NCBI GenBank assembly: GCA_026707585.1
Contig: JAPOWQ010000062.1
Location: 1-64,000, forward strand
DNA: 64,000 nucleotides
Direction: 5' to 3'
Source of the DNA: Chloroflexota bacterium
GTDB taxonomy: Bacteria > Chloroflexota > UBA11872
In this document: piece by piece, positions 1,329 through 55,809 of the stretch
How positions within the stretch are numbered: the first letter of the stretch is position 1
Layout: every line of letters begins with the position of its first letter
The notes under the pieces: generated by a model
Database searches by the model: none
Seen by the model: the letters and a program-made list of their open reading frames with translations, nothing else
Told to the model about the DNA's origin: nothing
Made by a program: the position numbers and the translations under genes

Positions 1329-1489
1329 GGGCACGTCGGTCCGCGGCCGCCGCGACGCACGGGCGCGGCGCCTGCGACCGACGGTACTCGATGCGCACCG
1401 GGGCGTTCCCGCGATGCCGCGGCGCCATGGCGACGCCCGGGATCAGGGCGGGCCCCGGACCTGCGCACCCAACACACACGGAGGCTGAC

Positions 1490-1999
1490 ATGACGGAATC
1501 GAGGACGACTTCCTGCGACGACGCCCTGCTCGACGCGCTGCGATGCAACCTGAGCCTGTTGCACGAATTGACGTTGCGCTACGGCGTCGAAACCCGCCCA
1601 GACCCAGCTGACGACCGACGGCCCGTCATCAACGGCCCCGATGACGTGCAGCGCCTGCTGGGGCCCGAGATGGCGGGCCTGGCCCAGGAGCAGGTGCGGG
1701 TGCTGCTCCTTGATACCGCGCACCGCGTTGTCGGGCAGCGGGTGATCTACCAGGGGAACGTGCGGGCCGTGCTGGTTCGTCCCGCCGAAGTGCTGCGGCC
1801 GGCGGTCGCGGCGGCCATTCCCCGGCTGATCGTCTGTCACAACCATCCCAGCGGTGACCCGATGCCGAGCGCCGAAGACACGGCGCTAACGCGGGCGCTG
1901 GTCGGCGCGGCCGATCTCCTCGGGATCCAGCTGCTCGACCACGTGATCATCGGCGGGGCGCGAGCGTTCAGCATGCAGGAGCATGGCCTGATGCCGTGA
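1490..1999 (+). CDS. radC: RadC/JAB (JAMM) domain protein
   Basis: This 169-residue protein belongs to the RadC/MPN family. The metal-binding JAMM motif is HNHPSGDPMPSAED (about residues 119-132), preceded by a typical RadC core (QVRVLLLDTAHRVV) and followed by LLDHVIIGG. The ATG at 1490 is chosen because GGAGG lies 5 bases upstream; the frame is open further upstream but lacks a ribosome site. It is shorter than the usual chromosomal RadC of about 225 residues and lacks the N-terminal helix-hairpin-helix region, which is typical of RadC copies on mobile elements. The biochemical role of RadC is not established; a DNA metabolism or element-maintenance function is inferred from context. Confidence 0.88.
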   Translation: MTESRTTSCDDALLDALRCNLSLLHELTLRYGVETRPDPADDRRPVINGPDDVQRLLGPEMAGLAQEQVRVLLLDTAHRVVGQRVIYQGNVRAVLVRPAEVLRPAVAAAIPRLIVCHNHPSGDPMPSAEDTALTRALVGAADLLGIQLLDHVIIGGARAFSMQEHGLMP

Positions 2000-2327: not shown

Positions 2328-3575
2328 ATGGCTTCAATACAACGTGCACAACGTGGAGCGTGGCGCGTTCGCGTGTACGAGGGTCGCGACGACAGCGGAC
2401 GCAAGCGCTATCGATCGCGCACCGTCAGAGGCACGCGTCGGGACGCCCAGCGCGTGGCTTCGAATCTCCATCTGGAGGTTGAACTCGGCGTCGCAGCGAG
2501 CGGTGGCCGTGCATCGCTAGCCGAGTATCTGCGAAGTCGCTGGCTTCCGCACGTGCGCCTGCATCGGCGGCCCAGCACGTATGCGCGGTATTCGGGCATC
2601 GTGGCCCGCTGCATTGCAGCGGATCTTGGTCGCCTGCCGCTGCGTCGCGTGTCTGCCGTCGATGTCCAAGGGCTGTGCGATCGCGCACTGGCGCAGGGCT
2701 TCGCGCCGGCGAGGGTTCATCTGATTCACGCGGTCGTACAGAAGGCCTTGGCACAGGCGGTCACCTGGCAGTTAGTGCCGCGCAATGCGGCAACTCACGT
2801 CGAACTGGCACGCATTCCCCAGCGCGCGATTGCTGTGCTAGACCGCACAGCAGTCCGGCGGCTATTTCAGACGAACGAGTCGCAGCCCGTCTATCCGCTG
2901 CTGGTGCTTGCGGTGCTAGGCGGACTGCGACGCGGCGAACTCCTTGGCTTGCGCTGGGCGGATGTCGACTTCGATAGGGAATGCGTGATTGTTCGCCGTA
3001 GCCTAGCGCCCGTGCGTGGCCGAGGGCTCGTATTAGGACCGACAAAGACCCATCATGAGCGTCGCGTGGACTTAGGCGCGCTCGGTCTGGAAGCCCTGCG
3101 AGAACAGTGGACGCGGCAGGTCGCCCAGCAGCGTCGTGATGCGGACGCTGAGCCCGCAGGGTGCCTTGTATTCGCCAACGCTGCTGGTCGGCCGCTGCAG
3201 TTCAGCACGGTCCATCGGTGGGTCAAGGCAGCGTTCAAGAGAGCGGGTTTACCCCCAGAGACGCGGCTGCACGACCTGCGCCACACGCACGCCTCGCTGC
3301 TGCTGGCGCGCGGCCACGCGCTGCCGGTGGTCAGTGAGCGCCTGGGCCACCGCACCAAGTCGACGACCGCGAACCTCTACGCCCATGCTCTGCCAACTTC
3401 CCAGCGAGCGGCGACGCAGGACCTGGACGCCTATCTGGCGGGTCCCGAGATGACTCCTGGACGACATAGGAGTTGGTCAACTCCCATCCCACCGGTTGTG
3501 CGTCAGCCCGGTGGGATGGAAGGGGGCGTTCGGTTGCAGCCGGCAAGCGGCTCGTCGTCGTTGAGATGTCCCTGA
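2328..3575 (+). CDS. Tyrosine recombinase / phage-type integrase
   Basis: A 415-residue site-specific recombinase. Residues 1-55 resemble the arm-type DNA-binding domain, about 65-160 the SAM-like core-binding domain, and about 175-370 the catalytic domain. Catalytic residues visible are R in GLRRGELLGLRW, H and R in LHDLRHTHAS (HxxR), H in LGHRTKSTT, and nucleophile Y in NLYAHAL. It would integrate or excise an element by strand exchange at att sites. The start at 2328 has AAAGGTGG upstream. The last 40 or so residues, after DAYLAG, are proline/glycine-rich, carry no family similarity that I recognise and are encoded across two inverted repeats, so the natural C-terminus may be earlier or the tail may be attachment-site sequence. 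Confidence 0.93.
   Translation: MASIQRAQRGAWRVRVYEGRDDSGRKRYRSRTVRGTRRDAQRVASNLHLEVELGVAASGGRASLAEYLRSRWLPHVRLHRRPSTYARYSGIVARCIAADLGRLPLRRVSAVDVQGLCDRALAQGFAPARVHLIHAVVQKALAQAVTWQLVPRNAATHVELARIPQRAIAVLDRTAVRRLFQTNESQPVYPLLVLAVLGGLRRGELLGLRWADVDFDRECVIVRRSLAPVRGRGLVLGPTKTHHERRVDLGALGLEALREQWTRQVAQQRRDADAEPAGCLVFANAAGRPLQFSTVHRWVKAAFKRAGLPPETRLHDLRHTHASLLLARGHALPVVSERLGHRTKSTTANLYAHALPTSQRAATQDLDAYLAGPEMTPGRHRSWSTPIPPVVRQPGGMEGGVRLQPASGSSSLRCP
3469..3519. repeat. Two adjacent inverted repeats at the integrase 3' end
   Basis: GGAGTTG (3469-3475) pairs with CAACTCC (3478-3484) across 2 bases. Directly after, CCATCCCACCGG (3484-3495) pairs with CCGGTGGGATGG (3508-3519) around a 12-base loop. 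The second is a perfect 12-bp stem, but no T-run follows. It could be a bidirectional terminator lacking a U-tract, a recombinase or excisionase site, or part of an att site. The structure is seen directly; the function is inferred. Confidence 0.6.
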
Positions 3576-5439: not shown

Positions 5440-7374
5440 TCAGTCCCGCCGTTCAGTTCCTGCGAGCTTCTTCCGTCCAGTTACACAGTGTGCTTTGACG
5501 GGGCACTGAACACAGGCTGGCGATCGGGACTTGCAGACAAGTGCTCCGAGGTCGAGGAGAGCTTGATTCCACGGCACATTTGCTCCTTCGTCGCCGGCCA
5601 GTTCGTGCAGGTGGAGCCTGATTCGCCAAGGTGGCAGGTGTGCATCGTTGCCGTGGACTCGTCGGGCGATTCGGCGGGTGTTTGTGTCCACCAAGACGCT
5701 AGTTCGGTCAAATGCAAAGCACTGCATTGCCGAAGCGATGTAGTTCCCCACCCCGGGGACGGCCGTTAACTCCGGCCACCGATCCGGAACTCTCCCGTCG
5801 TGTTTGCTTTGGATGTACTCCGCGGCTGCGGCTAGGTTTGCGGATCTCCAACGGAGCCCTAGCGTCGCAATGTAGGGTTCTATCTTCGCCCTGTTCAACA
5901 GAAAGCTCTTTGGAGTCTTGCCTAAGGCCAGCACTTCTTGGATTACTCGTGCTACCTGATCAGCCTTGGTTCTATGCAGGCACATTTCCACGACTAAAAA
6001 CTGCCAAGGACTCAAGTCGTCACTTCTCCACGGAAACCGACGGCCGTGGCGATTGAACCACGAGATCAGTCCTCTCCGGAAAGCCGATCCATAGTCGGGT
6101 TGCCTCTCACGAACTCCTGCTATGGCGACCTCGCCGTCAAGTGATCGGCGTAGCTCAACCGCAATGGCCCTGGCCAGAAATGGAGGCACCGCGTTGCCGA
6201 TCTGTCGAAACCTGTTGGTCGGATACCCTGCGAAACGGAACCTGTCGGGAAATGTCTGTATTCGAGCGGCTTCGCGGATCGAGAGGGTACGATCCTGTGC
6301 CGGGTGAATGTACCAATACCCATCCTTTGCGATGTGAGCCGTAATGGTTCTAGATACATCCTCAAATGAGAGTCTGAAGTACTTATCGTTGAATATGTCG
6401 GACCGGTATCTGCGAAGTGAATTGGGCACATCTCTGTAGGTATCTCCGGGCATCATGCGGCGGTATATCGCCGCATCGTCTGGGCGTACTGCCCGAGTGA
6501 TATGATCCCTTATTGATTTAGTCTCGGCTCCGCGTAACCCCCTACGAAGATCCCTCGCGAGTTTTGTGGTTGGATGGCCCTCATATGGATGTACTTCCTG
6601 TCTCGTATCGGGCGGAACTTCCGGAAGATCTCCTATCGCCTGCCATACCGTTGGTCGTCGGCTGGCAGGCTTTGGCCAATGGAATTCCAGTCCTGATTCA
6701 ATCGCGATGACAAAGAGGCGTGAGCGGTGCTGGGGAACACCGTATTGCCAAGCCTTAAGCTCTTGGACGTGAACCCTGTATTCGCGATCTTTAAGCTCGT
6801 CCAGAAGCGAGATGAGCAATGCACCGCCTTGAGCCTGGGCAAAATCTGGGACATTCTCGAATAACATGGCCCTTGGCGTCAGACGGTCGAGAATCGAGAA
6901 GAAGCTCTGCCACAGGTCAGCCCGTTCATCGTGCGCCGGCCTGTTCCCTGACTTGACGAGATTGCCGATCTTTGCCGTGCCAGCCCTCGAGAATGGTTGG
7001 CACGGAGGACCGCCGGCCAACAGATCGACGTTCTCGATTCCCCAAGTGTCCAGCTGGTCAATAAAGCTGTCAGGATTGGATAGGTCGCCCACCCAAGCGA
7101 GGCTGGGGATGTTCGCTTTGTGGGTTTCCATGGCGACGGAATCGAAGTCTGCTGCTGCAACGATCGAGAAGCCTGCGTCTTGGAGGCCGAGGCTCAAGCC
7201 CCCGGCACCCGAGTAGAGGTCAACGGCCCACGGTCTGGGCAAGTCATCAAGCCAGTGCCGAATGGCCTCGGGACTGTCCTGGTCGGGCGATCCAGGATGG
7301 CCTTCGAGGACAATCCGTTCACCGCGGCGCACTGGTAGTCGATGTCGATCCTCTAGTTTGTCTGAATGCGTCAA
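5440..7374 (-). CDS. drmMII: Cytosine-C5 DNA methyltransferase fused to MIG-like thymine-DNA glycosylase (DrmMII-like)
   Basis: A 644-residue two-domain protein. Residues about 48-415 form a C5 cytosine methyltransferase: motif I DLYSGAGGLSLGL, catalytic Cys in GGPPCQPF (about 123), ENV in FENVPD (about 172), QHRSRLFVIA, and motif X GNAVPPFLARAIA. Residues about 430-640 form an HhH-GPD glycosylase: FPWR near its start, hairpin VPGVGNYIASA (about 541), catalytic Asp in VLVDTNTRRI, and a 4Fe-4S loop CKSRSPACVQCPVKAHC (C-x6-C-x2-C-x5-C). The Tyr after GVGN, where endonuclease III has Lys, and MQCFAF match the archaeal T/G-mismatch enzyme Mig. The domain likely repairs T:G left by 5mC deamination. 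TTG at 7374 is the apparent start. The gene lies 18 bases after drmB and is the last of the locus. Confidence 0.85.
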   Translation of the reverse strand: MTHSDKLEDRHRLPVRRGERIVLEGHPGSPDQDSPEAIRHWLDDLPRPWAVDLYSGAGGLSLGLQDAGFSIVAAADFDSVAMETHKANIPSLAWVGDLSNPDSFIDQLDTWGIENVDLLAGGPPCQPFSRAGTAKIGNLVKSGNRPAHDERADLWQSFFSILDRLTPRAMLFENVPDFAQAQGGALLISLLDELKDREYRVHVQELKAWQYGVPQHRSRLFVIAIESGLEFHWPKPASRRPTVWQAIGDLPEVPPDTRQEVHPYEGHPTTKLARDLRRGLRGAETKSIRDHITRAVRPDDAAIYRRMMPGDTYRDVPNSLRRYRSDIFNDKYFRLSFEDVSRTITAHIAKDGYWYIHPAQDRTLSIREAARIQTFPDRFRFAGYPTNRFRQIGNAVPPFLARAIAVELRRSLDGEVAIAGVRERQPDYGSAFRRGLISWFNRHGRRFPWRSDDLSPWQFLVVEMCLHRTKADQVARVIQEVLALGKTPKSFLLNRAKIEPYIATLGLRWRSANLAAAAEYIQSKHDGRVPDRWPELTAVPGVGNYIASAMQCFAFDRTSVLVDTNTRRIARRVHGNDAHLPPWRIRLHLHELAGDEGANVPWNQALLDLGALVCKSRSPACVQCPVKAHCVTGRKKLAGTERRD

Positions 7375-7392: not shown

Positions 7393-9240
7393 CTACAAGT
7401 CAATGGGCTTAGTGTCCGGAAAGAATGCTATCTCAGGCAGATCAGTCGTGCCTATAAGGAGACCTCGATCAAGAAGGCGGTTTCCCGTCTCGCAGGAAGT
7501 CTCAGGCAGCAGAACGCATCCGTGGCATGCCGCCAAGTTGGCGTTATCCGTTCCCTGGCCGAGGCTCTCGATGCACACAGGATCGCTGGAGCACCACCGC
7601 AATCGATCGATAGCCCGCCCGAAAACGCCCGTGAGTCGGTCGGGCTCCCCCTGCCGAACGAGTCCTCCGAGAGTCCCCTCGGAGTCCCCGGACGCTGTAT
7701 AGATGAGCAAACCCTGCATTGGGTAATCGGAATCGTCGGCGTCGCAATACAGCCGCTCTCTCAGTGCTGCGCTCCCGTATCCGCAGTCAAAGCTCAATTG
7801 AGCGATCAGTGCGTGCGAAATCGTATGCAGAAGAACGTATTTTTCGGACATTATTGAATCACTCATGCCTCGGATTCGACGACGTCTATTGAAGCTCTCC
7901 GCGTGTGATGAGATTCGCGATTTGACATCCAATCGAGTGGACCAAGCGGCTATGGCAGCGTCGTTGAACTCGAGGAAGATTCCCTCGCCATAAACTTCAG
8001 TTGCCGGAAGCCAATCCAAGCTCTCACTCTGGGATATGGGAAGGAGATCGGGCGAAGCCGGATCCTCTACTGGCAGGATTCTGGAAAACCCGACCATTGC
8101 CCTCGTCTCACGTAGCTTCCTGACGAGACCGATTCCCTTCAATGCACTGGACAATTCCGAGCCATATTCGATAGCGTCCTTGGTTTCCACCACGAGATCG
8201 GAGGCCTCATCGCCCTGTCCACTCCTGAGGGCTTCGTATTCCTGCTGCCGAAAGCCGCTCTCGGAACTGTAGTCCTTGTCGGTGAGTTTCACAGTGCCGT
8301 CGAGCTTGCTCTGCGCAGCTTCAAGTAGGTCAGTGGTATCCACCTTGTGAGTGGCCGCTAGTACATCGCATCGAACCCGCTGGATGTATTTGCCGTCATC
8401 CAAGCCGGCGGTGAGGACATCCCAGTTCGCGGGATCGTCGAGAATTCTATTGATCGCTCGACTTGTGTCTTGTCCCCAAAGCGGGAGATGAATTGAGGAT
8501 GCCGTTACTGGAAAGTAGACATTCGATCCCCCACGCTGAACGACTCGCAGATGCTGACCGCAGTGTCCGCTTTCGTGGTCGTCTTCGCCGAGCCAGGGCA
8601 TGCTTCCTGAACAATCGTAGTCGATCTTGTGCAGCGAGTTGGCGTTGAATGTGCCGTTCATAGATGCTGACTTCTTGCAACTGCATTCAAGCTTGATGCC
8701 CGATAGACTGGCGGACGATCTTCCGGGTAGTAGGCGCAAGGAGTGTTGATCGTCACAATTTGATCCCCTATGGACCCACTCCATGAATGGAAAGTCCTCG
8801 ATGTGCCCTCTCGGGCAGGCGGCGATGAATCGGCTGGGGATCATCCACGGACGCCGAGACGGATGCAACGAGTAGCAGTCCAAGTCAGGTCTACACGGGC
8901 ATCTGAGGCGAGAACTGAAGAGGGGTAGTTTTTGCATCAAACCCCGCCTCGGGCAGTAGTGCCATCTTGGAAAGCGCACGAACGGTATGTGCTGATTTGC
9001 ATATTGAACCCCTGGACCAGGGTCTCTGAAGTCGGGAGGTTTTCTGAAGTGGGTAACGCCGAGTCGTGCTTGCAGGCGCTCCTCGCGGATCAGCCAATCT
9101 TGCGGACACTCCTCAATGGCAAGAGGCCATTCGTCCAAGCCCGCCGTCATTAGGGATTCGTCACCGCGAAAGTCCACCAATGCTCCGACGCCAAATGGAC
9201 TGATCAGCTGGCTTCTTCTAATCGGTCGAGATGACGGCAT
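7393..9240 (-). CDS. drmB: DISARM protein DrmB (DUF1998)
   Basis: A 615-residue protein with the DrmB/DUF1998 pattern: an N-terminal RRSQLISPFGVGALVDF segment, paired cysteines (CPCRPDLDC, CSCKKS) suggesting zinc sites, PSRFIAACPRGHIEDFP near residue 140, and the C-terminal DUF1998 block (LLHTISHALIAQLSFDCGY at about 480, then GLLIYTASGDSEGTLGGL) with more cysteines (LAACHGCVLLPETSC). In DISARM, DrmA and DrmB form the core complex that binds incoming DNA. ATG at 9240 is the only good start and lies 46 bases after the drmA stop; no strong ribosome site is visible, suggesting coupling to drmA. The gene order drmA-drmB-methyltransferase supports the call. Confidence 0.92.
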   Translation of the reverse strand: MPSSRPIRRSQLISPFGVGALVDFRGDESLMTAGLDEWPLAIEECPQDWLIREERLQARLGVTHFRKPPDFRDPGPGVQYANQHIPFVRFPRWHYCPRRGLMQKLPLFSSRLRCPCRPDLDCYSLHPSRRPWMIPSRFIAACPRGHIEDFPFMEWVHRGSNCDDQHSLRLLPGRSSASLSGIKLECSCKKSASMNGTFNANSLHKIDYDCSGSMPWLGEDDHESGHCGQHLRVVQRGGSNVYFPVTASSIHLPLWGQDTSRAINRILDDPANWDVLTAGLDDGKYIQRVRCDVLAATHKVDTTDLLEAAQSKLDGTVKLTDKDYSSESGFRQQEYEALRSGQGDEASDLVVETKDAIEYGSELSSALKGIGLVRKLRETRAMVGFSRILPVEDPASPDLLPISQSESLDWLPATEVYGEGIFLEFNDAAIAAWSTRLDVKSRISSHAESFNRRRRIRGMSDSIMSEKYVLLHTISHALIAQLSFDCGYGSAALRERLYCDADDSDYPMQGLLIYTASGDSEGTLGGLVRQGEPDRLTGVFGRAIDRLRWCSSDPVCIESLGQGTDNANLAACHGCVLLPETSCETGNRLLDRGLLIGTTDLPEIAFFPDTKPIDL

Positions 9241-9286: not shown

Positions 9287-12200
9287 TCAACTTCCGTAAC
9301 CGCTCGTTAGGTGACGCGCCGAGCAGCTTGCATCTACATTTCGCATTGAGCTTGGTGTAGGGTACGGGGCCTCGGGCCACTGCGGATGGAGTTGGTTACC
9401 AGCAGGGTGCATCATCGGCAGTTCCTCAGTGGGAGGTCCAAAGTCACCATATATCGATCTCGGGGCATCCGTCCATCTGCGAATGATCTCGTCAATGTGG
9501 GCTTCCGTTTTGGGCCACTCGTTGGGATCAGCCGACATGACTCGCTGCCGAATAGTGCGCTTTATGCGACGAATGAGCAGGTCATCCGGTGGGTTCGTGG
9601 GTCGATCTCGAAGAATGGACCCACCCCAGAAGCGACATAGAATGATCAGGAGGGCATGTAGTGCCCGCTCCCGAACCGAGACGGCAAAAGGTGTGACGCT
9701 CGTGGGTTCCACATGCTTGTATAGCGTTTGATGGTAGGTTCGGAAGTGCTCGTAGTGGGATCTATCCCTCGATCTTGACGGGTTGAAGTTTGTTACGACG
9801 ACTCCTGGGCTATCCACACGACGTCCTATGCGACTTGATGCTTGAATGTACTCAGCAGTCGTCTTGGGCTGGCCTACAATTGTCATGAGGCTAAGCCGAG
9901 GTACATCCAGGCCGACTTGGATCATGTTGGTCGCGAAGCAGACATCGATCGCCTCGGAATTGGAAGGTCCTGAATACTTCTCAAATAACTGCTGAAGTAT
10001 CGTTGGGATGTCACTGCTGCTGACCCGACTAGTTAGCTCAACGTCTCGGTTTATGAATCTGCGCAAATCTGTCCCAGATTGTCGAATCACGTCGAGACGC
10101 AATCCCAGTCGATCCCACATGGCATTGAGGTATTCCCGAATGTCGGCCCGGATTAGAGTCGCGGCGTGCCCGAGCTCTCTAAGGCTGTTGAAGTAGGCCA
10201 TCATAGTCCAGTAGGGATCGATAGAGGCGGGACTACTTGATCCGGCCAGCCTCGGTGCCTGTATGAGGGCGCTCATCGTGCGAATCTGGGATGTCACATG
10301 TGAGGGAAGTGCGCTAGCAAATACACCGACGTACGTCCGGCCGTCCGCGTCGCTATCTTCGGCTGCAAAGAATGAGTCGCCGATCCTGAGAGCCTGAGGC
10401 GGGAACAAGAATGAGGACCTACCGTAGAGTGCTTTGACTTGGCTCTCTGCCCTAGAGATGGTTGCGGTAGAGCCGATCACCTTGGGACGAGTCGGATGAC
10501 CACCATGATCACGTGTGCAAAGTGCGTCGACGACCGTTTCGTAGTGGCCTACCATTGATCCGAGCGGTCCTGAGATCAGGTGAAGCTCATCTTGGATGAT
10601 GAGATCTGGCGGAGAACCCTGCTTGCCGATGCCAAAGATACTTCTGGCCTCCGGGCGAAAAGCGAGCATCGCAAACTTGTCGACGGTACCAATTAGCAGC
10701 GTCGGTGGCGATTCATAGATGTGCTCATCGATGACGGCGACGGGAAGGCCGCCTTCTGAGCTGAAATCGCACTCCCGGTCTTCGCAGATGTGGCGGACGC
10801 GTTGGGGATGGGAGAGAAGTCGATATCCCTTTACTCTTGTATGCTGACTAAATCTCTGGGGCCCCATTGCCGCGCCACACCATGGACAGCTCACGAGGAC
10901 AAATTTGTTGGGTCCCTGGTCACGTTGAAGTTGCCTTAGTGCGTTGACTGCGTGGCTCTCACGATTTGGTGTGACTTCGCCACCCACCCATAGCCCGATT
11001 GTGAACGGACAACTACCCAGGTGTTGACTTCGCCGTCGTCGGATTATTTCACAGGCACAAATGAGGGACGCGGCTCGCTGAAACTGTTGCGTGCTGAGCA
11101 AGCGGAGTGTGTAGCGCATCAGAACTGTGGTGCCCACACTATCTGAGTCGCGCCGTCGTCGTAGAAAGATCGTAAAGGCTGAGAGCCCCAGATACGCCTC
11201 GGTCTTTCCGCCCCCGGTTGGAAACCAGATAACGTCCGCGATGTCGCGCTCATTGCACTGGGGATCAGCGAGCGCTTTGAGATTCATCAGCACGAAGGCA
11301 AGCTGGAAAGCTCGCCACTTGCGAGAAGAGTCATCGTAGTTCGGTTTCCGGTACCGCGAGCGAAGCGTCAATCGGCCGGATTTGGCTACCCAGCGTCGCA
11401 GCTGCTGTGATGAGAGCTCATAGTGAATCTGCTGCATCTGCATGGCTTCATTCATCAATCTGAAGGCCGACTCGATTTCAGGATCCTGGCTGATCAACTC
11501 GATTCCTCCGACAATTCGACTTAGACACGTTCTACAGTTTTCTAGGTGACGAAAGGCAGTTTTCTGTAGCTCCGGAGTCGAATCGAGTTCCTTCAATGCT
11601 TCGTCTTGGCGCTCGACTATCCAATCTCGATATGCATCCGCGAGTTTACGGCACCGACTGAGAATCTCGTCACGTTCGCCGTGAGCGAGCGTTGACATGC
11701 TGAGGTCGAGTTCCTTCACCTCGGTATGCAAGACCGGCTTGACTTCGTGAGTTGGGAGAACTTCGGTGCGAATGAGGGACGTCCGTCCATTGTCAGGATC
11801 GGCCCACTCAGCGGCGCAACCGTGACCAACTGCAAAGCTCTGCTTGTGAAGATGCAGAAGCTGGAGGGATAGTTCCTCGGCATCTCGGGAGTAGCTGGAT
11901 TGCTCGGGATAGCTGAGAAAGCAGCCGCGTGGGCCTGCTGAGGAGACGCTGAAAGCGCACTGGAAGAAGCATTCAGTATTGCGGGGTGTTGAACCCTCGC
12001 ACTGGAGTCGATTGACTAACGTGAATGTGACGAGCCGGCGCCTAGCTGTGCCCCCAAATGCGCGACTGACGATGTGGAGGACTAGAGCTGGTTGGCCATC
12101 CATCATCACGACGGGCTTCTCGAGCGATTTCCGAACTCCTTCGAGCAATTCACCGGATGTTACAGATAGGACTTCGTTGAAGGGCTGACGGAGCCAGGGC

Positions 12201-12661
12201 TTACGCCGCGATATTTGGCCCTTGATTTCGGGAGCGTCGCCCTGCCGGTATGTTGCACCGGAGATCTCGACTTCGATGCCGTCAGGAACGTCTACCAGAG
12301 CCGACAGTCCCATGGCGCTTGGGAGAAATTGATTAGCAAGATTGACGTCTTGGTCCGTCTCCGGAGTGCTGTCACCAGTTCGGCGCGAATCCGTGTCGAC
12401 TGTACTATCGAGAATCCCCGTCGGCTCCGGAGAGTTCGCCTCGGTTGGTTCGTCTTCGTCTGGTGCGGAAGCGTCGTGGCTGGGTACGTCGACTTTCGAG
12501 GGGAAGAGTACACCTGCACCATACCGCTGCCTTGGAGGATCCTGCGGTCTGAGGATCTCCTCTCCATTGGGTTGAACATCCGGAGACAGGGGTGAGGGAC
12601 CGACGAGTTCTCTACGAAGAAAATCAATGGTGAAGTCACGGACGACGAGGGTGTCACTCAC
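9287..12661 (-). CDS. drmA: DISARM helicase DrmA
   Basis: A 1124-residue superfamily-2-like helicase. Walker A is WFPTGGGKTEAY (about 480), Walker B IIQDELHLISG (about 690), motif III GSTATISR (about 730), and the helicase C-terminal half has YIQASSRIGRRVDSPG (about 945) with the NFNPSRSRDRSHYE block seen in DrmA. The roughly 450 residues before the helicase are family-specific and of unknown fold. DrmA with DrmB is the ATP-dependent DNA-engaging core of DISARM. The start is GTG at 12661, overlapping the TGA that ends the NERD-UvrD reading frame. No frameshift or internal stop was found, so the core of the system appears intact. Confidence 0.93.
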   Translation of the reverse strand: MSDTLVVRDFTIDFLRRELVGPSPLSPDVQPNGEEILRPQDPPRQRYGAGVLFPSKVDVPSHDASAPDEDEPTEANSPEPTGILDSTVDTDSRRTGDSTPETDQDVNLANQFLPSAMGLSALVDVPDGIEVEISGATYRQGDAPEIKGQISRRKPWLRQPFNEVLSVTSGELLEGVRKSLEKPVVMMDGQPALVLHIVSRAFGGTARRRLVTFTLVNRLQCEGSTPRNTECFFQCAFSVSSAGPRGCFLSYPEQSSYSRDAEELSLQLLHLHKQSFAVGHGCAAEWADPDNGRTSLIRTEVLPTHEVKPVLHTEVKELDLSMSTLAHGERDEILSRCRKLADAYRDWIVERQDEALKELDSTPELQKTAFRHLENCRTCLSRIVGGIELISQDPEIESAFRLMNEAMQMQQIHYELSSQQLRRWVAKSGRLTLRSRYRKPNYDDSSRKWRAFQLAFVLMNLKALADPQCNERDIADVIWFPTGGGKTEAYLGLSAFTIFLRRRRDSDSVGTTVLMRYTLRLLSTQQFQRAASLICACEIIRRRRSQHLGSCPFTIGLWVGGEVTPNRESHAVNALRQLQRDQGPNKFVLVSCPWCGAAMGPQRFSQHTRVKGYRLLSHPQRVRHICEDRECDFSSEGGLPVAVIDEHIYESPPTLLIGTVDKFAMLAFRPEARSIFGIGKQGSPPDLIIQDELHLISGPLGSMVGHYETVVDALCTRDHGGHPTRPKVIGSTATISRAESQVKALYGRSSFLFPPQALRIGDSFFAAEDSDADGRTYVGVFASALPSHVTSQIRTMSALIQAPRLAGSSSPASIDPYWTMMAYFNSLRELGHAATLIRADIREYLNAMWDRLGLRLDVIRQSGTDLRRFINRDVELTSRVSSSDIPTILQQLFEKYSGPSNSEAIDVCFATNMIQVGLDVPRLSLMTIVGQPKTTAEYIQASSRIGRRVDSPGVVVTNFNPSRSRDRSHYEHFRTYHQTLYKHVEPTSVTPFAVSVRERALHALLIILCRFWGGSILRDRPTNPPDDLLIRRIKRTIRQRVMSADPNEWPKTEAHIDEIIRRWTDAPRSIYGDFGPPTEELPMMHPAGNQLHPQWPEAPYPTPSSMRNVDASCSARHLTSGYGS

Positions 12662-14420
12662 GTCGAAAGTGACCTCTGCAATGATGATCTGATCCGTGTG
12701 TCAACAAGCTCGCGGACTTTCTCGTGGAGCATCAGAATCAAGAGGCTACGGGCCCTAGACATTCCCACATAGAGGAGAGACTGTGATCTATTGTCGTCGA
12801 CTTCATCGATGTCGCTGATGATTACAACCGGGCTTTCGAGCCCCTTGAAGGAGTGGATCGTCGAGAATCTGATTCACTCTTGAGGAGTGTGAAGTGACCG
12901 CGAACAGTCAACGAGCGGCATGCCACAGATACGGCCGACAGAGGCTAGGGCGGACTTCTCAAGGCGAATCGGTGAGAGGATCACCATGTCGTCTATTCGT
13001 ACGCCGTCGCGGGTCAATCGATCGACGGTGCGTTCTATAGACTTCAACATGCCGTCAGCCGTCTTCCAATACCTATGCTCCACCGGCATGCCCTGCTCGC
13101 GTCCAAGCCTGAATGGGGGCGCGTCAAATCCTCCGACAATTGCCGTCTCCTCCGCTATGCGCTTCGTGTTTCTGCAGTTAAGCGTAAGTCGAGCCCTTAC
13201 AAAATGCTCGCTGTGAAGCGATACCTGTGTGGAAGTTCTCGATCCATCGCCATAGAGAGCCTGCCGGGTGAAATCCCCAAAAAAAGCCCATGTTCCTTGC
13301 TCCAGTCCGCCACCAATGGCTTTGCTCAAGAGGCTAAGTGTGGTCTCGTCGAGGAGATCCTGCGCTTCGTCCATGACCAAGACATCGAAAGAACCCTGCA
13401 TCTCCTCTAGGGCGAGTTCTCCATAGAGTGGGTAAATATCGTCAAAAAGCGATGAAAGGTTGTCGCGGTCGATTGCTTGGTACTCCTGCAGGAGAAACTC
13501 ATCGCCGACGCTGCTGGACTCTATGATCTTTCTCAAAGTACGGTGCCAAGTTCCAGCTGTAATGCTTGTTCCCTCGGTCTGTTCACGAAGCCAGTCGCCG
13601 AGGAGGCGATTGAAGCAGACAAAGAGAACACTCGCTCCACTGCGGCTGGCCCTGCGCGCGTATTCAAGTGCGAGAAGTGTCTTACCAGTACCGGCAGCGC
13701 CCTCGAAGAGGCAACGAGGGTTGTCCTCAAGTTCATCAAGACGATCATACTGCTCTTCAGTCAATCTCACGAGCCTTGCTTCTGATCGGCCGAGCGAGAC
13801 TGACTTTGCCAGCACCCTGTCAAAATCCGGCCGCAGATAAGTTTGTATGGCCTTTAGATGAGATGGTTCTGCAAAGCGTCTATCGTTTCGATGGTGAAGT
13901 TCCTCCAGTCGAGTCCTAGCAGTCCTCTCGATGGACTCGGATATTGGCCTCTGAAGGTCCTTGGCGTCAATCACGTCTGCGCGCTCAAACTCTGGTGTCG
14001 GCGGCGGACAGTCCACGTCGGCGAAGACCACAGCACATCCAATTGGGCACCTGGACTCCGCGGACCACTGTCCGAAGTGATCGAGTACCTTGTGACGCAA
14101 TGCAAACATTGATTCCCGGGACTGCATGAATGGGCTCTTCTTCAGGGTCGCCATATTCCCTCGACGATCGGTGGTCGTCCAAGTCCCATCTTCACAAGAT
14201 ACGCGACCGCCCTTGACTTCCAAGCAAATAATTCCTCTGCTAGGAATGAAAATGACGAAATCGATTTCGCCGAAGGGACCCGTAGCTCTGCGCGAAAGAC
14301 AAGCGAATGTAAGGCGGTCCAATCGCTCGTGCCTGGGTCCGTCTGCAGTAGCCTGAAGACACGCCGTTCGGCCGAGCTCAGAACCGAATCGTCAATCCGA
14401 GCGGGGATCATTCTCGCCAT
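12658..14420 (-). pseudogene. NERD-domain UvrD-like helicase, frameshifted and with internal stop
   Basis: Joined frames give a NERD nuclease-related domain (start ATG 14420, DDPG-like DPGTSDWTALHSL, then GEIDFVIFIPSRG and CLEVKGGRVS) followed by a UvrD/Rep-type helicase (Walker A GAAGTGKTLLALEYA, Walker B VMDEAQDLLD, FFGDFTRQALYG). Two lesions are visible. A 1-base deletion near 14295-14302 separates the first 40 or so residues from the GEIDF part. An in-frame TGA at 12874-12876 follows SLHTPQE, after which the same frame resumes with helicase motifs V and VI (TIHSFKGLE and LLYVGMSRAR) and ends at the TGA overlapping the drmA GTG. The gene sits 13 bases after drmE. Either a decayed accessory subunit or two assembly errors. 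Confidence 0.85.
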
Positions 14421-14433
14421 GACTTATCGGCGT

Positions 14434-17004
14434 TCAGATGATTAAGTCGTCGGCCCATAGAAGTCGATTGACTTGGTCAGATGGGCAATCTTGCTGGCGG
14501 GAATCGATAGCCTGGACTTGGACGACCCAGGCCTGTCCGTAGTCCATTTCGAGCAATACAGGCTCCTCATCGAAGCGACTCAAAGAGCCTTGGACTTCGC
14601 CGAGGATGAGCTGAGTGAGACGGCTCCCGGCGGCAATGTGAGCGCCTCGAATCCTCGAGATGGCTTCGACTGTGTCGTTCATGTCCGCCGACAATTGAGA
14701 GTCACCAGTGGCCTTGGCAATGATCTTAAGATCACCGTCGTCGCCAGGTCCAATGAGATCAGGATTCCCCACCCAGCCCCGAACTGTCTGAACGGTCCTG
14801 TAAAGACCGTATTCCACGAGACGTCTCTGAACGACAGTTGGAGTTCCACCGAGTCGTCTGAGCGGAGGCTTCCAGCGTTCCGAAATGGCGCGGAGTCTGG
14901 CGTATTCCTCGATTCCGAGGTCGTCTTCAGCTAGCAGTCGGATGAATTCCTTGTCTCCACCAGCCCTGAAGAGCACAAAGTCGTCCTGTTGAAGGTCTGA
15001 AATGTTCACTGTGCGGAGGCGAGCGCCGTCTCTGGCCGAATCGTCCAGAAGCTCGTTGATGACATGCAGTTCGGACCAATGTGTCAGAAAGGCGTAGCAG
15101 CTTCCGTGGAATTCGACGAGCCGTGCCGGTCGAGCTTCATCGCCTGGGCCGACAGATATGAAGCGTGACGAGCGACTGCGCGACAGTCTGCGCTCAAGGT
15201 CAATCATTGGTGGTTCTGACGCCGTGGGCTGCTTTGACGCGGGCAGATCGGGAGGCTCCGATTCACGCAGAAGATCGGGGGCAAGCCCAAGGATCTCGGC
15301 TCGTGCTCTTGCCGACAGATGCTCGGACCGTAGGAAGTTTTGCTCGCGATTCTGATGGAGCGTCAACCATCGTCTTTCGAATGGATACGTGAGAATCACG
15401 ACTCTGTCTGCCGCGTCTAGGTTCGTCAGCTTCGTAAATCGTCGTCTGCCTGGCCACGCGGGCACGATTAGTCCATCCCACGAGGCTTCGCTACCCATCG
15501 ACTGTAAGGCGAAGACTGGGTACTCGAGTCCCAAGCCTTTCAGGTCGCCACTAATCTGACTGGCGGCTCTTGGCGTTCTTGCAGCTATGGCCCATCGCCC
15601 GTCGGATTCCACAAGCGTGCCAAGCAGGGCATCGGACTTCTCCGCGAGGGCAGAGGAATCGGAAGTGATTCGCCGAAACCCGTCCACGGCGAATTGAAAC
15701 TCTCCGAAGACGTCTTGAGGCATCCATTGTCTGTTACGCGTAAGTGTATCCTGGGCCCGTTCCATCTTTTGGATCGTCTCGTCGTCGGCTCCAAAGCAAC
15801 ACTCGCTGACGTCCAACAGGATTCCAAAGAGCATGGCCAAGAGATGCTGGGATTCCGAGTTCTCTTCCAGTTCGCCAGTGAGTGCTGCGGCGCGTTCAAG
15901 GGCGTCTGCAATCTCTTCGATCTCGGCACTTTGGCAGGGAACCGCAATTGCTACGCTTCGCTCACGAGTCTCAGCCATGCGAACGGTCCTACCTACGAGG
16001 CTGCGGCGAGACCGATTCGTGTGACTGGTTTCTCCGAGTGCTACCTCAGACGGTGACATGCGCCAGACCGGGCAGTCGCGGTCTCGTAGAAGCTTGACCT
16101 CGTCCGTCTCATCAGGTGACGCAAGTATGACCATCCGATGCTGATCGGCAATCTCGTCGAATGCTTGCAGGTCGCTGACGATTCCACGCGCACCGTCGAC
16201 CAGAACTACTCTGGAGGCCATCTCGACAGATCGTGAAGCGTCCGCCAAGTCTTGGGCCACTCGGGTGACGGCGATCAGCGGTTCCCCAATGACCTGGTAG
16301 CTGTCGCGCGGCTGAATCTCGCCGCGAAGTCCGATGGTTCCCCAAGGCATGAAACTCGACAATCTTGTGGGTCTGAGCTCGTTCACTCTCCCCAAGAAGA
16401 CGGATTCGGCGATTGCTGCAAAGCGCGCCTGCGCCATGTAGAGAAGCACCGAGTTTCGAAGCATGCTACTGTTTCCATAGGTCTTTATTCCAAGGATCCT
16501 GTCGAGTATGCTCGTCTGAAGTCCTCCCAAGTAGGACGTGAGCGTTCCCTTGGGCCGCTTGCGGGTGGTGGGTTCGAGCCGCAAAACCTCTGATATGGGA
16601 AAGCTTCGCCACTCCTCTCTATCTTGTACCTTGAGCCGGAACAAATCCGCCTCACCTTCCCAGATGCCCTCGTACTCATATACAAAATCACTAGGCTTCA
16701 CCTTTACATGCTGACCTTTGGCAAATGCTGATCTAGCATAGTCCGATGCAAGACTTGGGAATTCCTCCCGAAGTCTCTCAAGTACGAGAAGAATCGCAAC
16801 GAGAGCTGTCGTTCCTGGCGTCTTGTCGAGGACGAAGCAGCAGGCGCCAGGTTTACCCCTGATACAGGCACTCATTATCATTGCAAGGAACCATGGCAAT
16901 TGCTCTACTTTCTCACTCTGACCGAATCGCCCTACGACGTGAACGAGTGTTGGGAATCGCCTTTGCAGTTCTTGGATTAGCTCACGCTCGCTAGAGTCAG
17001 CCAT
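14434..17004 (-). CDS. drmE: DrmE-like DISARM class 2 protein
   Basis: An 856-residue protein placed first in the DISARM operon. I assign DrmE mainly from position (class 2 loci encode DrmE with DrmA, DrmB and a C5 methyltransferase) and size; the family has few motifs I can name. Visible features are an N-terminal alpha/beta segment with CCFVLDKTPGTTALVAILLVLE, a central VVLVDGARGIVSDLQAFDEIADQ resembling a helicase Walker B region, and a C-terminal LILGEVQGSLSRFDEE. The start at 17004 is preferred over longer forms because GGAGG lies 5 bases upstream of the ATG. An uncharacterised helicase-like protein is the alternative. The role in DISARM is not known in detail. Confidence 0.68.
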   Translation of the reverse strand: MADSSERELIQELQRRFPTLVHVVGRFGQSEKVEQLPWFLAMIMSACIRGKPGACCFVLDKTPGTTALVAILLVLERLREEFPSLASDYARSAFAKGQHVKVKPSDFVYEYEGIWEGEADLFRLKVQDREEWRSFPISEVLRLEPTTRKRPKGTLTSYLGGLQTSILDRILGIKTYGNSSMLRNSVLLYMAQARFAAIAESVFLGRVNELRPTRLSSFMPWGTIGLRGEIQPRDSYQVIGEPLIAVTRVAQDLADASRSVEMASRVVLVDGARGIVSDLQAFDEIADQHRMVILASPDETDEVKLLRDRDCPVWRMSPSEVALGETSHTNRSRRSLVGRTVRMAETRERSVAIAVPCQSAEIEEIADALERAAALTGELEENSESQHLLAMLFGILLDVSECCFGADDETIQKMERAQDTLTRNRQWMPQDVFGEFQFAVDGFRRITSDSSALAEKSDALLGTLVESDGRWAIAARTPRAASQISGDLKGLGLEYPVFALQSMGSEASWDGLIVPAWPGRRRFTKLTNLDAADRVVILTYPFERRWLTLHQNREQNFLRSEHLSARARAEILGLAPDLLRESEPPDLPASKQPTASEPPMIDLERRLSRSRSSRFISVGPGDEARPARLVEFHGSCYAFLTHWSELHVINELLDDSARDGARLRTVNISDLQQDDFVLFRAGGDKEFIRLLAEDDLGIEEYARLRAISERWKPPLRRLGGTPTVVQRRLVEYGLYRTVQTVRGWVGNPDLIGPGDDGDLKIIAKATGDSQLSADMNDTVEAISRIRGAHIAAGSRLTQLILGEVQGSLSRFDEEPVLLEMDYGQAWVVQVQAIDSRQQDCPSDQVNRLLWADDLII

Positions 17005-18055
17005 GCCATCCTCCAACGGCTGACGAATTGCCGGATGCTGGTCTTGTTCGAGGTCTGTGAGCATTGAAGGCCAAGTGTCGGGTGAGGAGGCCTGCATTGG
17101 CGGCACTAGACGCGACACGGGCTGGACGCCAACGGCGTCCGAAGCGAATCGTCGAAGAAGACGCGGTCGGCGAGGACATGGTGGATTGCTTGGAGTGCCG
17201 ATCGCTTAAGCGGCGTCCTCCTTGGTTACTCTGGGCCACTGCGTCGCTCTCGAGCACCTTCGCTGTCGAATGGAGGAGGCTTCCGCGCAAGTCTACTGAC
17301 ATCTGATTGCCCGTAGGCGGATCACGCTGCCGCGGCAGGTCCATGCCCGACGGGTAGCATTCCCAACGCCTCACAGTGCCGGCTGCCGTTGGTGGCACCT
17401 GATCCGGTGCGGTCGGGATCGTGACTTGTATAGCAGCAGGAGATGCGCGCGCGGCGAACGGCGGTGCGGCAGCCGGCTGCGCTGGCGACCACTGCACCAC
17501 TTGCGCCGCGTGCACGCCTGCCGGTTGATAGTGAACGCTTGGCTATTCGTTTCAGAACGACGATTGCACAAGCCTCTTGCCGATCCCCGGGAGCCTTCCA
17601 GCAGTCGGCGACACAGAGTCTGGACACACAGCTGTTCCAATGTGGATATGTCGATGAGATGACCGAGAGGTCTGCCGGCTCGAATGCCAGCAGGTTTGGC
17701 GAGTCCCGATGGAGCGGAATGGGGACTTCGATTGCATGAGACAAGCCGGACGATGCGTCCCGGGCGTTGCGGATGGGTGGTGCATACAACGTGGAGCGAA
17801 AGCCAGGTTCACCAAGATCCCGCCCTTGTGAGTCCGGGCCGCGCAAGGGTTAACTCAGCGGATGGTGGCTGGACTCCACCGGAGACGAAGCGAACGCTTG
17901 GTTGGGCGTAGTTGTTGCACACATTCGGAGGCATGCCCTCTAGGTTCTCTCCGCGTGGAGGACTCTAGCCAGTAGCACGCGCGCACCTTCGAGGCAGGTA
18001 GGCCGGAATGTTAATTCAGCATTATTCCCGTTGCCTCGGGACGCATGGACACTTG
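17005..18055. other. About 1-kb gap between DISARM and the MBL operon, no gene seen
   Basis: All open frames here lack start sites and recognisable products. The stretch lies upstream of drmE and downstream of the MBL gene (both minus strand), so it should hold the DISARM promoter and possibly a terminator for the neighbouring operon, but I could not place either with confidence. Confidence 0.5.
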
Positions 18056-19057
18056 CTACGTAGAGCCAGTCGTCGGCACCCGACTCCGCCTGCATAAAGC
18101 AGTGGGGGCGTTCAACCTAATGAAGTCGAGGTGTGCTTGCCGGGTAGGCCAGTAACCGTTCTCTGGTTCGAGCGTCACTTCCATGGTTCCAGCACAGCAG
18201 GCTCTTGCCTCGGCTCCTCTAGAAATGCCAGCGTGCAGACTCGACCGCTCTTGGGGTCGCTCGCTAGCGCAATGTCTCGATAGTTGCGTGCAAGCAATAT
18301 GAACATCTGGGACGGCGTCAAGGATGGCAGAGACGATATTTGGATCCGGTGTTCTGTATCTCGCCCGACCAATCGAAAACACCACCAAGTGAGCGCCGAC
18401 GAGCCTCATCAGCGATTCCGCAAAATCCCGAGGATCGGCTCGACGAGGCAGTCCGCCGTGGTGGGGAAACACGAGCACTTCTGCCCTGGCGTCTTCAGCA
18501 TGTGCCACGAGCTGGTCGAGACCGACTTTGTCTATATCACCTGCAATTAGAAGGCGTGGTGAGTCACCGGTCCAAACCCTCACTACCGCTGACATCGCAT
18601 TGGGCGTCAGTCGTTGTCCTCCCGGTGTTTGGCCACTAGTCGTTCTGACTGCGAACTGCTGCGACGGAGCCAGCACTTCCAGCCGACTAGCCCCAACCGA
18701 CAGCTGACCAGGATTTCCGCTGCTCAATTCGAGACTGAAGCGGGTTCCCCGCTGCTGCGCAGCCCGCATGACGGAGACAAAGTCGTCCCAAAGAACAGTT
18801 CGACGACTGTCTGGATTGAGATAAACATGACCCACTCGGTAGCGCGGGTCCGACAGCAGTAGAGAGATCCCGCCGAAGTGGTCAGCGTCGGCATGGGAAA
18901 CCAGAACAGAATCTATGCGCCTGATGCCTCGGTGAGAGAGGAAGTTAAGCAGTGTGTCTCCCGGCCCACCGTCGATCACCGACACCTCGCCGGAGTCCTC
19001 GATCACGGTCGAACTGCCGTGGCCCACATCGAGGATCCAGGCTCTACGAGGCAAGGT
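18056..19057 (-). CDS. ComEC/Rec2-like metallo-beta-lactamase-fold hydrolase
   Basis: A metallo-beta-lactamase-fold protein of about 333 residues, related to the soluble hydrolase domain of ComEC. Motifs are WILDVGHGSSTV at the N-terminus, the HxDxDH metal site in SHADADHFGG, LLIAGDID (third metal ligand) and VFPHHGG. A cysteine-bearing tail (CTQLSRHC, ACCAGT) follows. In ComEC-like enzymes this domain acts as a nuclease or phosphodiesterase. The frame is open to a GTG at 19171, but that would overlap the receiver gene by 128 bases; TTG at 19057 puts the start right before the domain and cuts the overlap to 14 bases. It is last in a four-gene overlapping operon and is the likely effector (inference). 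Confidence 0.8.
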   Translation of the reverse strand, partial: TLPRRAWILDVGHGSSTVIEDSGEVSVIDGGPGDTLLNFLSHRGIRRIDSVLVSHADADHFGGISLLLSDPRYRVGHVYLNPDSRRTVLWDDFVSVMRAAQQRGTRFSLELSSGNPGQLSVGASRLEVLAPSQQFAVRTTSGQTPGGQRLTPNAMSAVVRVWTGDSPRLLIAGDIDKVGLDQLVAHAEDARAEVLVFPHHGGLPRRADPRDFAESLMRLVGAHLVVFSIGRARYRTPDPNIVSAILDAVPDVHIACTQLSRHCASERPQERSSLHAGISRGAEARACCAGTMEVTLEPENGYWPTRQAHLDFIRLNAPTALCRRSRVPTTGST

Positions 19058-19757
19058 AATCCATACATGGTTCAGGTGCGGACTCAAAGTCCTGGAAATA
19101 GAGTTCACTTCCGTTATGGCACCCCACATTGACTCTTGCAAACAGCCGAACTGGCCAAGTGTCACGATCACACAGATTTTCTCTAATGGCCCGATCTTCT
19201 ATGAGCTCCAAAGGAAACCGGACTGCGCTGACTGGATTCCAAGTGTGAATTATTGCATCCGCAACAGCCGTTGAGCTCTCCTGCGATACTCCTTCAATCC
19301 TAACGAGTGTTCGCCACGATTTTCGGTCCGGCGCAATAATCCCAGATAGCTCGCTGTCGCATCTCTCCAATCCGCCAATGACGATCTCTGGGTCAAGGAA
19401 ACTCCTGTCGACTAAAGATGGTATATGGACCCGATGTAGTCTAATAGAGGTGTCGTCGTCAATCGATGAAAATGTTGAGAGCAAAACTGCCGGAATCCGC
19501 TCCTGATAGAGCGCCGAAACGAACTCTGCACCTGTGAATGATGCGAATCCTCGGTCAGAGAGACGGTGGTCACAGATCACAGCCGAAGAGCGTGTGGTTC
19601 GGATTTGCTCAAGCAGGTCGTTCGGGACAGAGAATGAGCCATGTGTCGGCTCTATGATCGTCGGAGTTAGACCGGCTTCTTCTGCGATACCAGCGGCGGT
19701 TTCCGCGTAGTCGGGAACATCGTCGACGACTGCGACACGGGTGCCGACGCCGATCAC
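19044..19757 (-). CDS. Receiver-domain protein with C-terminal extension
   Basis: A 237-residue protein beginning with a CheY-like receiver fold: acidic pair in VAVVDDVPDY, probable phospho-acceptor Asp in VICDHRLSD, and VLLSTF at the usual Thr/Ser position. After about residue 130 there is an extension without a DNA-binding helix-turn-helix that I can recognise, so it is unlikely to be an ordinary transcription regulator. The GTG start at 19757 overlaps the TGA of the kinase gene (GTGA). The overlaps imply it is made together with the double-GHKL kinase upstream and the MBL hydrolase downstream, and it plausibly passes a phosphate signal between them. Confidence 0.75.
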   Translation of the reverse strand: MIGVGTRVAVVDDVPDYAETAAGIAEEAGLTPTIIEPTHGSFSVPNDLLEQIRTTRSSAVICDHRLSDRGFASFTGAEFVSALYQERIPAVLLSTFSSIDDDTSIRLHRVHIPSLVDRSFLDPEIVIGGLERCDSELSGIIAPDRKSWRTLVRIEGVSQESSTAVADAIIHTWNPVSAVRFPLELIEDRAIRENLCDRDTWPVRLFARVNVGCHNGSELYFQDFESAPEPCMDYLAS

Positions 19758-23106: not shown

Positions 23107-24178
23107 GTTCGTCAGAGACCCGCTTCCTTCCGTGCTCGCAGTCTGTGAAGGCAACAGTCTAATCGGCTTTGGGGGCGAGTCTGGGCTCTAGGATTCGGGG
23201 AGTCGCGGCGATCGGCAGAGAAAAATGGCTCCTAACTACGGGCGGGCTGATTGGGAGCGTCGATCGATCCGCCGCGGCTGCGCGCTTGGGCTCGCTAATT
23301 CTGAGCGCGCTTCCGAAGCGGTCGGACGTCTTGCGACCCTCCCTAGGCAGTCTCGGCCTCTTGCGGTCACCAGCTTGCAAGATCTCGGCCATAAGGCGGT
23401 GAAGAAGGACGATGTCGCTCACTTGGTCGAGGGTCAGGTGTCCATACGCGGGACCGGGCCGGATCGAGTGTTCCGTTGCCCGCGACCTCGTGTTCGTCTT
23501 CCTCAGTGGATGTTGAAGTCCTAGAAGTGATCAGCCCTGAAGAGGGTCATATGGATTTAAGCGGCCTAGCGCCGCGTTCCAAGGGACAGATCTCGCACTC
23601 GTGGCCGTTCTTGCTGGCGACGTGGTTACCAATAGCTGCCACGAATGACAGCGCCGAGTGGCGTTGCGGCGTTGCTATTGGCACTAGGCGATTCCAGAGC
23701 GCTTGAGGTCCCCAAGGCGAGGTGGTGTGTGCCTGGCAGCTCTGCGCTTAGTCCGATGACGGAGTTTGAGCATCTTGGTCTCGACTAATAACTCGTAGGC
23801 TGCTCCGGCATTCCCGGTGGACGACTTTCCGGAAGGTGAAGGAATCGGAGTCGAGAGGATCGCGCTTGCCAGCCTCATCTGCTGCTACGTGGCCAGTTTA
23901 AGACTGCAGGAAGAGTCTTTGGAAACCGCCCCGCTCTACCTAGATGCACCTGGCGCTCTTGGCCGAAGCACTTGTGGGTCGAGCCTCCACTCAGAGACTT
24001 CGTGCTGCAAAGCGAGCGAAGTTTGCGTCATCACTCTGACTATGCAGTGAGGACGAGTGCGCACGGAGGCCGTCCGTGCGTGGGAGTTGATCCAAAACAA
24101 CTCTCAAGATTACTGACAAAGCAGCTGACGATCGTCCATTCTCAGAGCTGGATGTGGACTCCGGTTTATCAGACTTCG

Positions 24179-54265: not shown

Positions 54266-55809
<1,544 letters not shown>

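What the first reader, a model, noticed from the sequence alone, without database searches (positions are those of the whole stretch)
5440..7374. C5 methyltransferase fused to a MIG-type thymine-DNA glycosylase in a DISARM locus
Seen: one frame holds a complete C5 methyltransferase (PCQ, ENV, motif X) and then an HhH-GPD glycosylase with a 4Fe-4S loop, GVGNY at the site where endonuclease III has Lys, and a catalytic Asp. Known: 5mC deaminates to T, and Vsr or Mth-Mig proteins encoded next to C5 methyltransferases repair the T:G. Inference: the fusion puts self-marking and repair of its mutagenic by-product into one protein. I do not know of this fusion being described for DISARM.
Basis: partly seen in the sequence, partly recalled or inferred. 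Interest (0 to 1): 0.85.

Follow-up and report, generated by a model that had tools for sequence, protein, structure and literature searches.

The report
DNA methyltransferase fused to repair glycosylase
A bacterial anti-phage (DISARM) locus encodes a single protein that both methylates cytosine and carries a base-excision repair domain probably suited to fixing the thymine mismatches that such methylation causes, and the same pairing recurs, fused or as adjacent genes, across bacteria and archaea.

Summary
One 644-aa frame (5440-7374, minus strand) holds a complete C5 cytosine methyltransferase and a complete HhH-GPD/4Fe-4S glycosylase, directly after DrmB, DrmA and DrmE. It is not an assembly artefact: the fusion occurs intact in five other Chloroflexota genomes. 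A GTDB-wide scan for the glycosylase gave 34 loci in bacteria and archaea. In 33 a C5 methyltransferase is fused (6) or within 144 nt on the same strand (27); the last is cut by the contig end. About a third also carry DrmA/DrmB. In a separate survey of 44 Chloroflexota DISARM loci, a glycosylase or Vsr accompanied 8 of 10 with a C5 methyltransferase and 1 of 34 without. An independent, reverse-order fusion (EndoIII-like glycosylase, then methyltransferase) also sits in a DISARM locus. Best explanation: self-methylation coupled to T:G repair, with the glycosylase in the slot Vsr fills elsewhere. "MIG-type" is partly right: seven compared active-site residues match Mth-Mig, but the Tyr is not diagnostic, the whole fused clade has MutY's Gln where Mig has Leu, and the domain forms its own clade. 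Activity is untested. New variant of a known kind.

The parts
5440..7374 (-). Fusion CDS: C5 cytosine methyltransferase + HhH-GPD/4Fe-4S DNA glycosylase, 644 aa
6151..7224 (-). C5 methyltransferase domain (aa 51-408), catalytic PCQ, ENV, QxRxR and GNAVPP motifs intact; the only C5 methyltransferase found in this genome
5464..6093 (-). Glycosylase domain (about aa 428-637): Glu463, Arg468, Ala471, Tyr545, Asp563, Gln604
5485..5535 (-). 4Fe-4S cluster loop CKSRSPACVQCPVKAHC (aa 614-630)
7393..9240 (-). DrmB (NF038324, above cut-off)
9287..12661 (-). DrmA helicase (NF038325, 948 of 950 bits needed)
12874..14322 (-). NERD nuclease domain + helicase between DrmE and DrmA; no DrmC found in the locus
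14434..17118 (-). DrmE family protein (NF038316, above cut-off)

Best explanation
The protein is the self-marking methyltransferase (DrmMII) of a DrmE-type (class 2-like) DISARM system, with a mismatch-repair glycosylase built in. The N-terminal domain methylates a C5 cytosine in an unknown target site, so that host DNA is spared. 5-methylcytosine deaminates to thymine, leaving T:G mispairs that ordinary uracil glycosylases do not repair. The C-terminal domain flips out and excises the mispaired thymine (and probably uracil) as Mth-Mig does, with the Asp/Glu catalytic pair, Tyr545 contacting the base, and a 4Fe-4S loop for DNA binding; general AP endonuclease, polymerase and ligase finish repair. 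It thereby does for this methyltransferase what Vsr does for Dcm. Shown here: the fusion, intact motifs, its conservation, co-occurrence with C5 methyltransferases rather than with DISARM as such, and alternation with Vsr. Inferred: T:G specificity, methyltransferase activity, any benefit from physical linkage.
For: (a) 33 of 34 glycosylase loci from a GTDB-wide scan have a C5 methyltransferase fused or within 144 nt on the same strand, often with 4-nt or longer overlaps, in Chloroflexota, Cyanobacteria, Pseudomonadota, Myxococcota, Bacteroidota, Gemmatimonadota, Thaumarchaeota, Bathyarchaeota, Heimdallarchaeota and Methanosarcina; the remaining locus is cut by the contig end. (b) Survey of 44 Chloroflexota DrmB loci: a glycosylase or Vsr is present in 8 of 10 with a C5 methyltransferase and 1 of 34 without, Fisher p=2e-6, uncorrected for relatedness. 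(c) Vsr instead of glycosylase in close DISARM relatives: L100 beside L019/L036/L037/L099, and L101 beside L018/L020 in the DrmB tree; no Vsr in any of the 34 glycosylase loci nor anywhere in the window's genome. (d) That genome has separate EndoIII and MutY-like genes and only one C5 methyltransferase, this fusion. (e) Active-site residues match Mth-Mig at F27, R30, E42, R47, A50, Y126 and D144. (f) Glycosylase domain under purifying selection: dN/dS about 0.16 for L026 vs L027. (g) A second, independently built fusion of an EndoIII-like glycosylase with a C5 methyltransferase, in three genomes, in one of them beside DrmB/DrmA.
Against: Position 187 (Mig Leu) is Gln in all fused proteins, as in MutY; L187Q together with A50V turns Mth-Mig towards A:G (PMC2714593). 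Fold and sequence scores favour MutY slightly. In cyanobacteria (L015, L035) the corresponding fused domain has lost the catalytic residues, so a fused domain can persist without catalysis. No activity is known for any member of this clade. Two of ten C5-type DISARM loci have neither repair gene (L105, L107).
Confidence: 0.7

Rival explanations
1. The domain is a MutY-like adenine glycosylase that happened to be fused, removing A opposite G or 8-oxoG.
For: Gln604 equals MutY Gln182; best sequence and fold matches are B. stearothermophilus MutY; best NCBIfam model is mutY, though Mth-Mig itself also scores best there.
Against: Only 121 bits against a cut-off of 286; no C-terminal 8-oxoG-reading domain (frame ends 14 aa after the last Cys); Ala471 and Arg468 instead of MutY Val45 and Gln42; outside the MutY clade; no reason for an adenine glycosylase to follow C5 methyltransferases; the genome already has a MutY-like gene.
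Confidence: 0.1
2. The glycosylase is an effector: it excises bases in phage DNA (modified or unmethylated sites), as R.PabI-type restriction glycosylases do, with DrmA/DrmB.
For: It sits in a defence operon; base-excising restriction enzymes exist (PMC10273834); the locus lacks the usual DrmC nuclease.
Against: It is absent from DISARM loci that lack a C5 methyltransferase, occurs with C5 methyltransferases outside DISARM, and trades places with Vsr. Many glycosylase-bearing DISARM loci keep DrmC.
Confidence: 0.08
3. The glycosylase domain is catalytically idle in vivo and serves as a DNA-binding or scaffolding module for the methyltransferase or DrmA/DrmB.
For: Degenerate fused domains persist in Synechococcus and Stenomitos, keeping cluster Cys but losing the catalytic Tyr and Asp.
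Against: In the Dehalococcoidia clade every catalytic residue is conserved in all seven sequences under purifying selection.
Confidence: 0.08
4. Writer-eraser: the domain removes 5-methylcytosine itself, as plant ROS1/DEMETER do.
For: HhH-GPD 4Fe-4S fold; fused directly to a writer; the independent reverse-order fusion has an EndoIII-like domain with Lys and Asp.
Against: The window domain lacks the Lys of bifunctional EndoIII/DEMETER enzymes and has Tyr there; excising 5mC would undo self-protection and break DNA.
Confidence: 0.04

Closest known systems
Mth-Mig (Mig.MthI), thymine/uracil glycosylase of plasmid pFV1, encoded near a C5 methyltransferase and an NgoPII-family restriction enzyme
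   Same: HhH-GPD with 4Fe-4S, no 8-oxoG domain, F27, R30, E42, R47, A50, Y126, D144 conserved; encoded close to a C5 methyltransferase
   Different: Here fused, in DISARM; Gln for Leu187; different clade
Vsr endonuclease beside Dcm-type methyltransferases
   Same: Same genomic slot and proposed task, repair of T:G after 5mC deamination
   Different: Nickase of unrelated fold; not a glycosylase
DISARM class 2 (drmE, drmA, drmB, drmC, drmMII)
   Same: DrmE, DrmA, DrmB and C5 methyltransferase present
   Different: No DrmC found; NERD-helicase added; methyltransferase carries a glycosylase domain
MutY adenine glycosylase
   Same: Highest sequence and fold similarity; Gln182
   Different: No C-terminal domain, V45 and Q42 replaced, separate clade
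MORC/paraMORC and HEF_HK-Response_reg_2 neighbourhoods with C5 methyltransferase and Vsr (PMC2292703, PMC8011034)
   Same: GHKL ATPases and C5 methyltransferases sit beside the same fused protein in L025-L028, and a similar GHKL/HK pair is in the window
   Different: Those papers report Vsr; the word glycosylase does not occur in either

Membership tests
Mth-Mig T:G glycosylase | Tyr at EndoIII Lys position, catalytic Asp, 4Fe-4S, E42, R47, A50 | tested here: met
   window Tyr545, Asp563, Glu463, Arg468, Ala471
Mth-Mig T:G glycosylase | Hydrophobic residue at position 187 (Leu) | tested here: not met
   Gln604 in window and all fused homologues; Leu, Tyr or Phe (once His) in the unfused ones
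Mth-Mig T:G glycosylase | Groups with Mth-Mig in a tree | tested here: not met
   own MTase-linked clade 98/94; Mth-Mig with Caldicellulosiruptor 91/85
Mth-Mig T:G glycosylase | Excises T from T:G | not testable with these tools
   needs enzyme assay
MutY | V45 and Q42 (adenine pocket) | tested here: not met
   Ala471, Arg468
MutY | Q182 | tested here: met
   Gln604
MutY | C-terminal 8-oxoG-recognising domain; TIGR01084 score above 286.5 bits | tested here: not met
   frame ends 14 aa after last Cys; 121 bits
Endonuclease III | Catalytic Lys in HhH | tested here: not met
   Tyr545; nth model 59 of 212 bits
C5 cytosine methyltransferase | Motifs I, IV (PCQ), VI (ENV), VIII, X | tested here: met
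DISARM class 2 | DrmA, DrmB, DrmE and C5 methyltransferase together | tested here: met
DISARM class 2 | DrmC (PLD nuclease) | tested here: not met
   no DrmC-like match in the window, no PLD match on its contig; none by the DrmC search in L023 either
DISARM class 2 | Methylation-dependent phage restriction | not testable with these tools
   needs experiment

The most novel reading that the evidence does not exclude
The fused glycosylase is part of the defence reaction rather than genome upkeep: it makes abasic sites in phage DNA (for example at bases the phage has modified, or at mispairs), and the methyltransferase domain guides or restrains it, giving DISARM a base-excision effector in place of DrmC.
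Probability: 0.07. Interest if true: 0.85.

Novelty: new variant of a known kind. Interest (0 to 1): 0.6.

Why it matters
Cytosine-methylating immune systems pay a mutational price at every marked site. This shows that DISARM systems with C5 methyltransferases repeatedly carry their own repair enzyme, either a glycosylase or Vsr, and that writing and repair have been joined in one polypeptide at least twice, in opposite order and from different glycosylase families. That makes it testable whether the cost of self-marking shapes which defence systems are kept, and offers a compact enzyme in which methylation and repair may be coupled at the same site. It also matters for annotation: the one annotated relative examined (Synechococcus) is labelled only 'DNA cytosine methyltransferase', and several unlinked-looking gene partners are labelled hypothetical protein.

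Tried and rejected
Assembly or frame artefact: rejected, fusion intact in five other genomes. Tyr as proof of a Mig enzyme: rejected, B. stearothermophilus MutY has it. Viral origin: one scan of viral contigs gave no relative; phage records gave only matches below 60% identity, where annotated named mutY. Glycosylase as a general DISARM component: rejected, absent from C5-less DISARM; the one extra HhH hit there (L126) is an EndoIII with Lys among housekeeping genes. Local promoter/terminator scan was uninformative. A survey centred on archaeal DISARM could not be started. Literature: nine full-text searches found no paper joining DISARM, or a C5 methyltransferase fusion, with this glycosylase; subscription papers and most preprints were not searchable.

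Full report
Observation. The minus-strand frame 5440-7374 encodes 644 aa without a break. Residues 51-408 match the C5 cytosine methylase family (E=4.9e-57) and residues 462-581 the HhH-GPD family; the complete glycosylase domain, to the end of its 4Fe-4S loop, aligns with MutY and Mth-Mig structures at E=2e-25 to 7e-21. Motifs IV, VI, VIII and X of the methyltransferase, and Glu463, Tyr545, Asp563 and four cluster cysteines of the glycosylase, are intact. An AlphaFold2 model of the whole protein has mean pLDDT 91.5 and pTM 0.90.

Setting. Upstream on the same strand lie DrmB, DrmA, a NERD-helicase and DrmE; DrmB and DrmE pass NCBIfam cut-offs and DrmA misses by 2 bits. No DrmC/PLD gene was found in the locus. 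A GHKL/histidine-kinase-like protein, a small protein in the response-regulator position, an MBL-fold protein and an N6-methylase-like protein follow further upstream. The genome (3.9 Mb draft, 96% complete) has one C5 methyltransferase, this fusion, separate EndoIII and MutY-like genes, and no Vsr.

Distribution. A scan of one genome per GTDB species with the glycosylase alignment gave 34 loci. Six are the same fusion, one of them (L024) with a disrupted methyltransferase part; 27 have the glycosylase and C5 methyltransferase genes next to each other on the same strand, at most 144 nt apart, 24 with the methyltransferase first and many with overlaps; one is cut by the contig end. Thirteen of the 34 have DrmA and/or DrmB, including Thaumarchaeota, Bathyarchaeota and Methanosarcina, several as methyltransferase-glycosylase-DrmA-DrmB-DrmC. 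Others sit with GHKL ATPases. The fused protein itself occurs with DISARM (window, L023, L024), with a HEF_HK-like GHKL/histidine-kinase and response regulator pair (L025, L028), and with a GHKL-Z1-AIPR-HNH set (L027, checked by Pfam; L026 by the same gene layout). In the literature on these last two neighbourhoods the partner is Vsr, and glycosylases are not mentioned (PMC2292703, PMC8011034).

Is it tied to DISARM or to cytosine methylation? Of 44 DrmB loci from 400 Chloroflexota genomes (those with a full enough DrmB to place in the tree), ten have a C5 methyltransferase nearby: five have this type of glycosylase, one the reverse-order fusion, two Vsr and two neither. Of 34 without a C5 methyltransferase, one has Vsr and none a linked glycosylase (Fisher p=2e-6; loci are related, so the p-value is optimistic). 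In the FastTree DrmB tree the Vsr-bearing L100 and L101 each sit next to glycosylase-bearing loci. No glycosylase locus among the 34 contains Vsr. So the glycosylase follows cytosine methylation and alternates with Vsr.

A second fusion. In L141, next to DrmB/DrmA, a 685-aa frame has an EndoIII-like glycosylase (with Lys, Asp and 4Fe-4S) first and the C5 methyltransferase second; two further genomes have the same protein at 52-54% identity, without DrmA/DrmB matches in the stretch held. Order and glycosylase family differ, so this is an independent event.

What kind of glycosylase? At the positions that distinguish Mig from E. coli MutY (PMC2714593) the window has Mig-type Phe, Arg, Arg, Ala and Tyr, but MutY-type Gln at position 187; the Gln is constant in the fused clade, whereas unfused relatives have Leu, Tyr or Phe (one His). 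Tyr alone proves little because B. stearothermophilus MutY has it. The tree gives a clade of MTase-linked glycosylases (98/94) containing the fused ones (100/99), separate from MutY (99/99) and from Mth-Mig; which of the latter is nearer is not settled (80/95). Foldseek on the domain model ranks MutY first and 1kea fifteenth with nearly equal scores. I therefore call it Mig-like by pocket and by context, not a proven Mig orthologue.

Origin and upkeep. The methyltransferase tree joins the fused clade, L043 and the two cyanobacterial proteins (98/90), so the C-terminal fusion may have arisen once, with the domain later degenerating in cyanobacteria (Stenomitos L035 has a degenerate fused domain plus an intact separate glycosylase gene) and the two parts being separate genes in L043. 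In the Dehalococcoidia clade the glycosylase domain is under purifying selection (L026 vs L027: dN 0.13, dS 0.79).

Mechanism. Most likely the protein marks host DNA for DISARM and removes thymine from the T:G mispairs that arise when its own product deaminates. Conservation, context and residues are shown; specificity, target motif and any advantage of tethering are inferred. The Gln at 187 is the main doubt.

Novelty. Mig near a C5 methyltransferase is known from pFV1. A conserved glycosylase partner in DISARM, its fusion, the reverse-order second fusion and the alternation with Vsr in DISARM were not found in the open-access papers searched, including a 2025 survey of DrmA-type helicases that does not contain the word glycosylase (PMC12458937). 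I rate it a new variant of a known kind.

Noticed in passing
18056-23154 (minus): GHKL/HATPase_c_3 + HATPase_c protein resembling HEF_HK, an overlapping small protein in the response-regulator position, an MBL-fold ComEC-like protein and an N6-methylase-like protein, directly upstream of the DISARM genes; similar GHKL/response regulator pairs flank the same fused methyltransferase in L025 and L028.
   Followed up: partly
12874-14322 (minus): NERD nuclease-helicase protein inserted between DrmE and DrmA (also in L024, not seen in L023); may stand in for the missing DrmC nuclease.
   Followed up: partly
L141:7574-9631, L147:1792-3636, L148:8886-10841: Independent reverse-order fusion of an EndoIII-like glycosylase (Lys and Asp present) to a C5 methyltransferase; L141 lies next to DrmB/DrmA.
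   Followed up: partly
L015:3895-5820 and L035:8000-9901: Cyanobacterial methyltransferases with a degenerate glycosylase-like C-terminus that keeps cluster cysteines but not the catalytic residues; L035 also has a separate intact glycosylase gene, and both have a DUF6339 gene set beside them.
   Followed up: partly
L002/L003 (own genome contig C28): The genome's MutY-like protein lacks a recognisable C-terminal domain and has Ala where MutY has Val45 (EILLQQTQA), unusual for MutY.
   Followed up: no
1391-1999 (+), 2328-3575 (+) and 54222-55754 (+): A RadC-like frame and a tyrosine integrase beyond the fusion gene, and a serine recombinase-like frame further on: the locus looks like part of an integrated island; ends not mapped.
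   Followed up: no
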